Shown here piece after piece: positions 1,935-31,604 of a stretch of DNA of 44,665 bases. Position 1 is the stretch's first letter, and every line of letters begins with the position of its first letter. This DNA is from Candidatus Levyibacteriota bacterium (GTDB lineage Bacteria > Patescibacteriota > Microgenomatia > Levybacterales > UBA12049). The stretch is from NCBI GenBank assembly GCA_016204465.1, contig JACQKQ010000034.1, positions 1 to 44,665 of the forward strand. The letters are read 5' to 3'. The notes beneath the pieces are model-generated. The model made no database searches, was not told the DNA's origin, and saw only the letters and a program-made list of their open reading frames with translations. The position numbers and the translations under genes were made by a program.

Positions 1935-2846
1935 ATGAAAAATATAAAGATTCAAAGACATCTGTTAGTTCTCATCATATTGATCGGATTAATGTTTTGT
2001 TCTTCAAAAGGTGTTAAGGCAGCAGAATGTAGCACTTTGACGACTTGCGGAAGTACTTGCTCGTATGGAGGAGTTACTTATAATACTGTCATAATCGACA
2101 GCCAATGTTGGTTTAGAGAGAATCTCAATGTTGGGGCAATGATTACAAATTTAGAAATTCCTGATAATACAGCTCCAACTCTCAATGATCCAAACACTGT
2201 TTCAAAATGGTGCTATAATGATAATCCGATTTACTGTAATCAAGAAGGAGGATTATATACTTGGGCTGAAACCAACGCTTTGTCTAATTCTTGTAACTTA
2301 AATTCCTGCAGTGTCCCAACTCCCAATCAGGGTATTTGTCCCATCGGTTGGCACATTCCAACTGATGCCGAATTTTATACGCTGGAAAATTATTTAACAT
2401 CACCAGGGTAGACGTGTGATGCGACAAGAGATGGTTGGGGTTGCTCTGGTGCCGGAATCAAACTCAGACTGGGTGGAATCTCCGGTTTCGATGCGATAAG
2501 CGCCGGTAATCATGAAACGAATGGAAATCTCAGCTTTTTCGACAAGCGTGAGCCATCCATACACTTTTGGTCATCTTCCCCTTGCCTTGTTTGCGCTAAT
2601 TGGGGTCACGCGTATGGTCGCAGCTTGATAGGTTGGGGTGATAACCCCTTTGTTGCCCGTGGTTGGAGTCATATGGCGCATGGTATGTCTGTTCGGTGTT
2701 TATCTGACACTGCCGTCATTGGTCCTCCGACAAATAAGAACCAGTGTAAAAATAATGGCTGGCAGATATTTAATAATCCAACTTTTAAGAATCAGGGAGA
2801 TTGTGTCAGTTACGTCCAAAGTAGTCCGAATGCGATAGGCAACTAG
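1935..2846 (+). pseudogene. FISUMP (Fib_succ_major paralogous domain) secreted protein interrupted by one in-frame TAG at 2409-2411
   Basis: ORF 1860-2411 and ORF 2625-2846 are in the same frame, and 2412-2624 is open in that frame. WHIPTDAEFYTLENYL...AGIKLRLGG...SVRCLSD is FISUMP-like; SD aggaggtg lies upstream of ATG 1935; N-terminal signal sequence. Confidence 0.8.
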
Positions 2847-3872: not shown

Positions 3873-4172
3873 GTGCAATATAAAGGTTACAGAATTGAGT
3901 TTTCTGAAGAGAAGAATTTATTACTAAAGGAAACAAGAGAACTATGTTTTGAAGATGCTTTAAAAGCAATTGAAGAAAAGAAAATTTTGGATGACCTTAA
4001 GTCTAGTAGCAAAAAGTATCCTCATCAAAGAATATTAGTAATAAAAAGAGAAGAATATACTTATGCTGTGCCCTATGTGATAGACAAAAAAAGGAAAGTA
4101 ATTTTTCTTAAAACAGTCTACCCAAGTAGGGTTTTGACTGATAAATATCTGAAAGGAGGTGGGAAAATTTGA
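3873..4172 (+). CDS. BrnT-like toxin of a type II TA pair
   Basis: RILVIKREEYTYAVPYVIDKKRKVIFLKTVYPSRVLTDKYL; overlaps the downstream RHH-type gene by 4 nt. Confidence 0.6.
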   Translation: MQYKGYRIEFSEEKNLLLKETRELCFEDALKAIEEKKILDDLKSSSKKYPHQRILVIKREEYTYAVPYVIDKKRKVIFLKTVYPSRVLTDKYLKGGGKI

Positions 4173-4453
4173 AAGTAATACTTGATAAATATGAGAAAGA
4201 TTTAGAAGCTGCCCTAGAAAAGGGTGAATTTGTTAATGCGCCTAATTTAGAAGATACTAAACAAATGTTTCAGGAAGCAGCTAGAAACTTTAGGCAGTTA
4301 CAAGAAACAAAGAGTATTACCTTAAGGGTTAATAGAGAGGATCTTATTAAAGTTAAATCTAAAGCCAAGAGAAATGGTATAGCTTACCAAACCTTGATAA
4401 GCTTGTTAATTCGTCAATATATAAAAGGGGAGAAAGAAGTAATTTTAGATTGA
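4169..4453 (+). CDS. ribbon-helix-helix-like antitoxin
   Basis: ITLRVNREDLIKVKSKAKRNGIAYQTLISLLIRQYI; translationally coupled to the toxin ORF. Confidence 0.65.
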   Translation: MKVILDKYEKDLEAALEKGEFVNAPNLEDTKQMFQEAARNFRQLQETKSITLRVNREDLIKVKSKAKRNGIAYQTLISLLIRQYIKGEKEVILD

Positions 4454-4589: not shown

Positions 4590-4622
4590 GTAGACTTCAA
4601 TCGTGAAAGGATTGAAGTCTAC
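4590..4622. repeat. 13-bp perfect hairpin with the tnpA GTG start in its loop
   Basis: GTAGACTTCAATC-GTGAAAG-GATTGAAGTCTAC; GTG at 4603. Confidence 0.9.
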
Positions 4623-4794
4623 GGCACAAACAAAGTACGATTTGAGATATCACTTTGTCTTTGTACCAAGGTATCGCAAGCGAGTACCGAGGAGAAAAAT
4701 TTTAACAATTGTTGTGAACCTTGTTAATTTGAAAAATGCAAGGCTATCAGAGAGTAAATACAGTATTGCAATAGTCGAAGAAAAGATAAAGTAG
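4603..4794 (+). mobile_element. decayed IS200/IS605-type TnpA (Y1 transposase) N-terminal remnant
   Basis: TKYDLRYHFVFVPRYRKRV matches the conserved IS200 TnpA N-terminus, including HFVF; the rest of the ORF no longer resembles TnpA and no HUH motif is seen. Confidence 0.75.
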
Positions 4795-30464: not shown

Positions 30465-31604
30465 TTAGAGGGCTAAAAGTAGAATGGCGCCGATAAGAAC
30501 GAGAGCAATACCGGCAATACCTACTCCTAGCACTATATCCTCCGGGCCTGTAGGTTCGATTGTTGGCTGTACTGCTACTTCCGTTGGTGTTGGAACCTCA
30601 GTTGGCGTTGCAGTTGGAACTGTTGTTGCAGATGGTGTTGCTGTTTGACCTCCTGCTCCTCCTGTGACGGTAATCGTTTGCTCGCATTTGGTATTTGGTG
30701 CGTTTACAACGTTTGCGTTATTTGTAAGTTTAGCTGTTGCTTTATATGTTCCGGCGTTTATAAAAGTATGTGCTTTCTGCAAGCTCACCTTATTTGTTCC
30801 AATGCCGCCGCCGGTTGTCACATCTTCCAACGGCCCGTCACCATAATCAAACGTTACCTTTTGGATTGTGCCCACCGCATCTGAACCGTTTACGGTGAAG
30901 GTAATGGAGAAAGGCGCACTGCCGGATGTTGTGCGATCAACGTTTAGGCTGTCACACGTTGGCGCTTGTGCAGAGGTTGTCGGTCCTGCTGTTGGCGATG
31001 GTCCTGCTCCAATTGCAATAAACGCAGCTGTTCTGCCTGAAGGTAGCAACACGTTTTCACTTGGCAAGTCGGATTCGGCGATTGAGAGCACTTGTGTTTG
31101 GGAATCAAATGTTACTTGTGTTGGTGTTGTGCCTGTTTCGGCAAGACCTTTAAATGTAACTGTCGCTACTTTTTTAGGTTCTTGTACGACGCTTGTTGGA
31201 TCAGCACCAACAGAAAGCGTCATCGTAATGCCCCCGCTTGTGTAGATATGCCCTTCAAGCGTTGCAGGGAAAGTTGTCGTATCTGGGCAGAGTGCTTCAG
31301 AACAGGAACCGCTAGCTGTAGCAAGTTTTGTTGCGTCGTACTTAATCACCAAACTGATAAAGGAGACCTGATTTTTGTTTGCACCAGGATCAACTTGTAT
31401 GTCAAGAGAGAATGTGTCACCAACTTTCTTCTGTAAAGGATTATTTTGTGACGACGAAGGAATAAAAGCAAGTGTTGTTGCCGGCGCTGCACGACTCTGC
31501 GTCTTCTGTTCTTGTTGCAGAAAGTACACCGTAAGGGGGACTGCAACCAATAAAGACACAATAAACCCTAGCAAAAGCAATTTTTTGCCTGAAAACAAAG
31601 ACAT
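30465..31604 (-). CDS. cell-surface protein with cohesin-like and PKD domains and C-terminal TM anchor
   Basis: VGDTFSLDIQVDPGANKNQVSFISLVIKYDATKL (cohesin-like); ITFTVNGSD...VTFDYGDG...HTFINAGTYKATAKLT (PKD); PT-rich linker and TM. Confidence 0.8.
   Translation of the reverse strand: MSLFSGKKLLLLGFIVSLLVAVPLTVYFLQQEQKTQSRAAPATTLAFIPSSSQNNPLQKKVGDTFSLDIQVDPGANKNQVSFISLVIKYDATKLATASGSCSEALCPDTTTFPATLEGHIYTSGGITMTLSVGADPTSVVQEPKKVATVTFKGLAETGTTPTQVTFDSQTQVLSIAESDLPSENVLLPSGRTAAFIAIGAGPSPTAGPTTSAQAPTCDSLNVDRTTSGSAPFSITFTVNGSDAVGTIQKVTFDYGDGPLEDVTTGGGIGTNKVSLQKAHTFINAGTYKATAKLTNNANVVNAPNTKCEQTITVTGGAGGQTATPSATTVPTATPTEVPTPTEVAVQPTIEPTGPEDIVLGVGIAGIALVLIGAILLLAL

What the first reader, a model, noticed from the sequence alone, without database searches (positions are those of the whole stretch)
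2575..2710. Adenine-depleted, NNY-codon-rich C-terminal segment of the FISUMP gene resembles a DGR variable region
By direct count, 2581-2700 has 15 A in 120 nt, while 2101-2160 has 20 in 60 and 2761-2820 has 21 in 60. From 2596 to 2703, 25 of 36 codons end in C or T (…GGT CAC GCG TAT GGT CGC AGC…GAT AAC CCC TTT GTT GCC CGT GGT…). In ordinary FISUMP proteins this segment is usually Asn/Tyr-rich. Replacement of AAY codons by NNY with loss of A is the signature of adenine-specific DGR mutagenesis, which is common in CPR and known for C-type-lectin-like surface proteins. No RT or A-rich template copy is present in the window, so this would need a remote or lost DGR.
Basis: partly seen in the sequence, partly recalled or inferred. 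Interest (0 to 1): 0.68.

Follow-up and report, generated by a model that had tools for sequence, protein, structure and literature searches.

The report
Orphan DGR-like FISUMP lectin gene, broken
A broken surface-protein gene in a tiny candidate-phylum (Patescibacteria) bacterium carries a stretch that looks like those rewritten by a known mutation-making retroelement in related bacteria, but no such element was found in its genome, so it is most likely a leftover.

Summary
The stretch encoding FWSSS...SVRC (2565-2699) has 16 A in 135 nt; none of 10,367 45-codon windows in 29 other ORFs of the contig is as A-poor, and the depletion exceeds what its amino acids predict (expected 23.9 A, P=0.002). 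A-ending codons nearly vanish (2 of 27, against 54 of 143 upstream). Relatives give real support: FISUMP genes in other Patescibacteria, one in the same class, are targets of diversity-generating retroelements (DGRs) with A-biased template/variable pairs, and their variable regions share the low A content and 3' border.

The gene itself fails the defining tests. The held genome (88.8% complete) shows no reverse transcriptase and no template. At 12 codons that are AAY in verified templates, verified variable regions are 60/60 NNY, the window 9/12. The 5' half of a FISUMP variable region is not A-depleted here. The gene has an in-frame TAG and a tail shared with the family's other secreted proteins.

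Best reading: an orphan, probably relict variable region of a known kind of DGR target. A never-diversified FISUMP, or a DGR in the unassembled part, remain possible.

The parts
1935..2846 (+). FISUMP-domain gene, 303 codons if the internal TAG is read through; signal-peptide-like N terminus
   Evidence: only Fib_succ_major match in the held genome and in 73 genomes of the family
2091..2702 (+). Fib_succ_major (FISUMP) domain, PF09603 / TIGR02145
   Evidence: E=1.3e-22 in the genome search; Pfam 79.6 bits, NCBIfam 81.1 bits
2409..2411 (+). In-frame TAG stop, aligned with the Gln of the GQTC motif of relatives L037, L038, L041
   Evidence: TAG is the normal stop of 9 of 32 long ORFs in the contig
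2484..2564 (+). Part that corresponds to the 5' half of FISUMP variable regions; not A-depleted here (A 0.30; verified VRs 0.11-0.19)
2565..2699 (+). A-depleted core (FWSSS...SVRC), variable-region-like: A 16 of 135, A-ending codons 2 of 27
2706..2843 (+). 46-residue C-terminal tail (core motif GPPTNKNQCKNNGWQIFNNPTFKNQGDCVSYV) shared with unrelated secreted proteins of the same family and class
   Evidence: no Pfam match to this part

Best explanation
The segment is the variable-face part of a FISUMP domain that descends from a DGR target. Its low A content and missing wobble A are the footprint of a template whose adenines sat in AAY codons and were rewritten by error-prone reverse transcription. 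The DGR is no longer with it: in this lineage the domain is joined to a native secreted-protein tail, it lies in a genome where no reverse transcriptase or template is found, and it carries a nonsense codon upstream of the segment. It is most likely an orphan, decaying variable region that is not being diversified. Shown: A and wobble-A depletion, FISUMP domain, TAG, tail, absence of RT and TR in the held 88.8%-complete genome, intact FISUMP DGRs in relatives. Inferred: descent from a DGR target, loss of the DGR, loss of function.
For: Core A 0.119, as in five verified FISUMP VRs (0.12-0.15) and below all 85 other FISUMPs (mean 0.246, minimum 0.162). Wobble-A avoidance 2/27 against 54/143 upstream, Fisher P=0.0015; VRs 0.04-0.11, others mean 0.26. 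Depletion beyond amino-acid content, P=0.002. Depletion ends near SVRC, where verified VRs end. The best matches of the conserved FISUMP core are Patescibacterial targets, several with a verified TR/VR pair, and 11 of the Patescibacterial FISUMP genomes searched have an RT. Same-class precedent with target, accessory-like ORF, template and RT in order (G357).
Against: Only 9 of 12 canonical AAY columns are NNY, against 60/60 in verified VRs (GAA, AAG, TGG break the rule, though the alignment is uncertain around two of them); upstream part not depleted. No RT, no TR. FISUMPs L108 and L047 show nearly the same depletion without a template in their loci, and L047's genome has no RT hit, so the signature is not fully specific. 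A tree of the conserved core does not place the gene (long branch 0.99, unresolved).
Confidence: 0.5

Rival explanations
1. An ordinary, never DGR-diversified FISUMP domain on a long branch, whose Gly/Trp/His/Arg/Val-rich loop happens to use few adenines.
For: No RT or template in the held genome; NNR codons at canonical sites and an undepleted 5' half; some FISUMPs without a visible template come close (L108, L047).
Against: Amino-acid content does not explain the depletion (P=0.002); wobble-A avoidance matches VRs and templates; no other FISUMP outside the Patescibacterial set is as A-poor in the core.
Confidence: 0.33
2. An active DGR acts in trans: its RT and template lie in the roughly 11% of the genome that is not assembled, and the TAG is a population variant or an assembly error.
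For: Genome 88.8% complete in 50 contigs; the frame stays open for 144 codons after the TAG (chance about 4e-4); wobble A has not returned; remote DGR targets are known (PMC8144416).
Against: In all six verified FISUMP DGRs the template lies 740-791 nt from the variable region, and here that side is assembled and empty of it; NNR codons at canonical sites.
Confidence: 0.12
3. The segment was brought in recently by recombination from an A-poor donor FISUMP, with no link to any DGR.
For: FISUMP is patchy in the family (1 of 73) and the gene is a chimera with a native tail.
Against: The rest of the FISUMP domain has ordinary A content (0.30) and only the core differs; the border coincides with that of verified VRs.
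Confidence: 0.05

Closest known systems
FISUMP (Fib_succ_major, PF09603 / TIGR02145) DGR targets of Patescibacteria: L036, L037, L040, L043, L067, and G357 (L131) of the same class
   Same: Domain, conserved motifs (WHIPTDAE, FWSS, SVRC), core A content and wobble-A avoidance, 3' border of the depleted stretch
   Different: They have a template 740-791 nt away and an RT of one family, NNY at all canonical sites, a depleted 5' half, and end soon after SVRC; this gene has none of these, has a TAG and a 46-residue tail
FISUMP / DUF1566 targets of gut DGRs and Bacteroides uniformis phages (PMC4159848, PMC8143477)
   Same: Same domain family named as DGR target
   Different: Known there with TR and RT; neither is found here
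Ordinary FISUMP proteins of Bacteroidota and Fibrobacterota (loci)
   Same: Domain architecture and C-terminal FWSS...SVRC block
   Different: Their core A content averages 0.246 (minimum 0.162) against 0.119 here

Membership tests
FISUMP domain protein | Match to PF09603 / TIGR02145 over the curated cut-off | tested here: met
   79.6 bits (cut-off 33.9) and 81.1 bits (cut-off 41.65) with the TAG read through
Diversity-generating retroelement | Reverse transcriptase in the genome | tested here: not met
   RVT_1 none (the same search finds RTs in 23 of 100 relatives); FISUMP-DGR RT profile none. Genome 88.8% complete
Diversity-generating retroelement | Template repeat that differs from the variable region only or mainly at adenines | tested here: not met
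   blastn, two A-degenerate 60-mers with up to 3 mismatches, TR/VR profile: only the gene itself
Diversity-generating retroelement | Variable codons of NNY type where templates have AAY | tested here: not met
   9 of 12 canonical columns NNY; verified VRs 60 of 60. Alignment uncertain in the insert-bearing parts
Diversity-generating retroelement | Adenine-poor, wobble-A-poor C-terminal stretch of a C-type-lectin-like target (supporting, not defining) | tested here: met
Diversity-generating retroelement | Hypervariation among cells of the population | not testable with these tools
   No reads available
C-type lectin fold | Fold similarity to solved C-type lectins | tested here: inconclusive
   AlphaFold model pLDDT 66.7; Foldseek hits include C-type lectins but none is significant

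The most novel reading that the evidence does not exclude
A DGR in the unassembled part of this small genome still diversifies, in trans, a FISUMP domain fused to the lineage's own secreted-protein tail, using only the 3' half of the usual variable region, and the TAG is a population variant.
Probability: 0.1. Interest if true: 0.5.

Novelty: new member of a known kind. Interest (0 to 1): 0.33.

Why it matters
If the relict reading holds, base composition alone (low A plus missing wobble A against the gene's own background) could mark former or orphan DGR targets in incomplete Patescibacterial genomes where template and RT are missing. The relatives found on the way show FISUMP as a DGR target in several Patescibacteria, whereas PMC8144416 reports that targets of the Patescibacteria-restricted DGR clade mostly carry no recognisable conserved domain.

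Tried and rejected
Stop-codon reassignment was rejected, because TAG ends 9 of 32 long ORFs of the contig. NNY richness alone was set aside as weak, since other parts of the gene reach the same value. Phages gave only a 28%-identical match in two huge-phage records, plasmids nothing. Viral contigs gave one very VR-like FISUMP, L118, without a template or RT in the DNA held. An exact 27-mer from the 3' border had no viral match. No solved structure matches by sequence, and the fold search was inconclusive. The tree of the FISUMP core could not place the gene. A 120-aa ORF between target and template (L043; a 116-aa one in G357) looks like the accessory gene avd by position and size, but has no Pfam match.

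Full report
Observation. NNY richness by itself is not unusual for this gene. The adenine depletion is: the maximal A-depleted segment of the gene is 2564-2729 (codon-shuffle P=0.0005). The core encoding FWSSS...SVRC, 2565-2699, has 16 A in 135 nt, lower than each of 10,367 45-codon windows in 29 other ORFs of the contig (minimum 17). Resampling synonymous codons with local usage expects 23.9 A (P=0.002) and 25.1 NNY codons against 33 seen (P=0.001), so the amino-acid sequence alone does not explain it.

What the gene is. 1935-2846 encodes, after read-through of one TAG at 2409-2411, a 303-residue protein with a signal-peptide-like start and a FISUMP (Fib_succ_major) domain. It is the only FISUMP in the 881-kb, 88.8%-complete genome and the only one among 73 genomes of the family. 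The TAG falls on the Gln of a GQTC motif of relatives. TAG is a normal stop in this contig, so the gene is broken, although the frame stays open for another 144 codons (chance about 4e-4), which suggests a recent change, a population variant or an error. After the domain comes a 46-residue tail whose core is found at 41-81% identity at or near the C terminus of otherwise unrelated secreted proteins of this family and class. The gene is thus a chimera of a FISUMP domain and a native tail.

The yardstick: FISUMP DGRs in relatives. FISUMP is already a documented DGR target domain (PMC4159848 Table 2; PMC8143477; PMC8934634). A search of relatives and an A-specific repeat scan found FISUMP DGRs in L036, L037, L040, L043 and L067, with most mismatches at template adenines (21/25, 17/21, 30/42, 20/25, 22/26, edges included). 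RTs of one family, 52-54% identical to that of L037, lie nearby in L040, L043 and L067; the copy in L036 appears split between frames. A sixth, in G357 of the same class as the window's genome, has target, a 116-aa accessory-like ORF, template and RT in order (18 of 22 mismatches at A). Variable regions and templates lie 740-791 nt apart in all six.

Comparison with the yardstick. The window segment agrees in core A content (0.119; VRs 0.12-0.15; templates 0.22-0.24; 85 other FISUMPs mean 0.246, minimum 0.162) and in avoidance of A at optional wobble positions (0.07; VRs 0.04-0.11; others mean 0.26; Fisher P=0.0015 within the gene). The depletion also stops near SVRC, where the VRs end. It disagrees at the codons that define the mutagenesis: 9 of 12 canonical AAY columns are NNY, against 60 of 60 in verified VRs, and the 5' half of the VR is not depleted (0.30 against 0.11-0.19). 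The breaking codons are GAA, AAG and TGG; the alignment is uncertain near the two small insertions. The signature is not fully specific either: Bacteroidota FISUMPs L108 and L047 come close without a template in their loci, and L047's genome has no RT hit. VR-like FISUMPs without a local template also occur in L039, L041 and L118; L039's genome has no RT hit.

Machinery. There is no RVT_1 match in the held genome, while the same search rings in 23 of 100 relatives, and no match to the FISUMP-DGR RT profile (the tool rightly notes that an empty answer without a positive control shows little). No template was found by blastn, by A-degenerate 60-mers with up to 3 mismatches, or by a 62-position TR/VR profile. 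About 11% of the genome is missing. On the downstream side, where templates lie in the verified cases, the contig is assembled and holds a deaminase-like gene and a CopG-type antitoxin gene instead.

Verdict. Most likely it is an orphan, relict variable region of a FISUMP DGR target (0.5). An ordinary FISUMP with an unusual loop is the main rival (0.33). An active DGR in the unassembled part (0.12) needs reads or a closed genome to test. It is a new member of a known kind, of modest interest.

Noticed in passing
window 2706-2843; L024-L026, L029-L031, L034, L035, L111: A C-terminal module of about 35 residues (CKxxGWxxFxxPxFKNQGxCVSYV) ends or nearly ends many unrelated secreted proteins of this family and class; Pfam shows no match to it in the window protein. 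It looks like a surface or sorting module.
   Followed up: partly
window 2409-2411: In-frame TAG in the FISUMP gene at a Gln of relatives, with the frame open for 144 codons after it.
   Followed up: yes
L036, L037, L040, L043, L067, L131 (G357): Six FISUMP-targeting DGRs in Patescibacteria and unclassified bacteria; in L036 the RT appears split between frames, and L040 has a second FISUMP gene (10264) that is A-poor but does not match the local template.
   Followed up: partly
L039 6834-7020; L041 588-774; L118 1225-1411: VR-like FISUMPs (all canonical sites NNY, A 0.12-0.15) without a template in the DNA held; L039 lies in a Woesearchaeota-labelled genome with no RT hit.
   Followed up: partly
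window 4603-4794: Remnant of an IS200-like transposase (weak Y1_Tnp match covering only profile positions 2-28), next to a CopG/BrnA-type antitoxin gene (4169-4453).
   Followed up: no
window 30538-31010: The strongest A-depleted segment of the contig (+ strand), inside an ORF on the minus strand (30465-31604) that encodes a Thr/Pro-rich surface-type protein.
   Followed up: no
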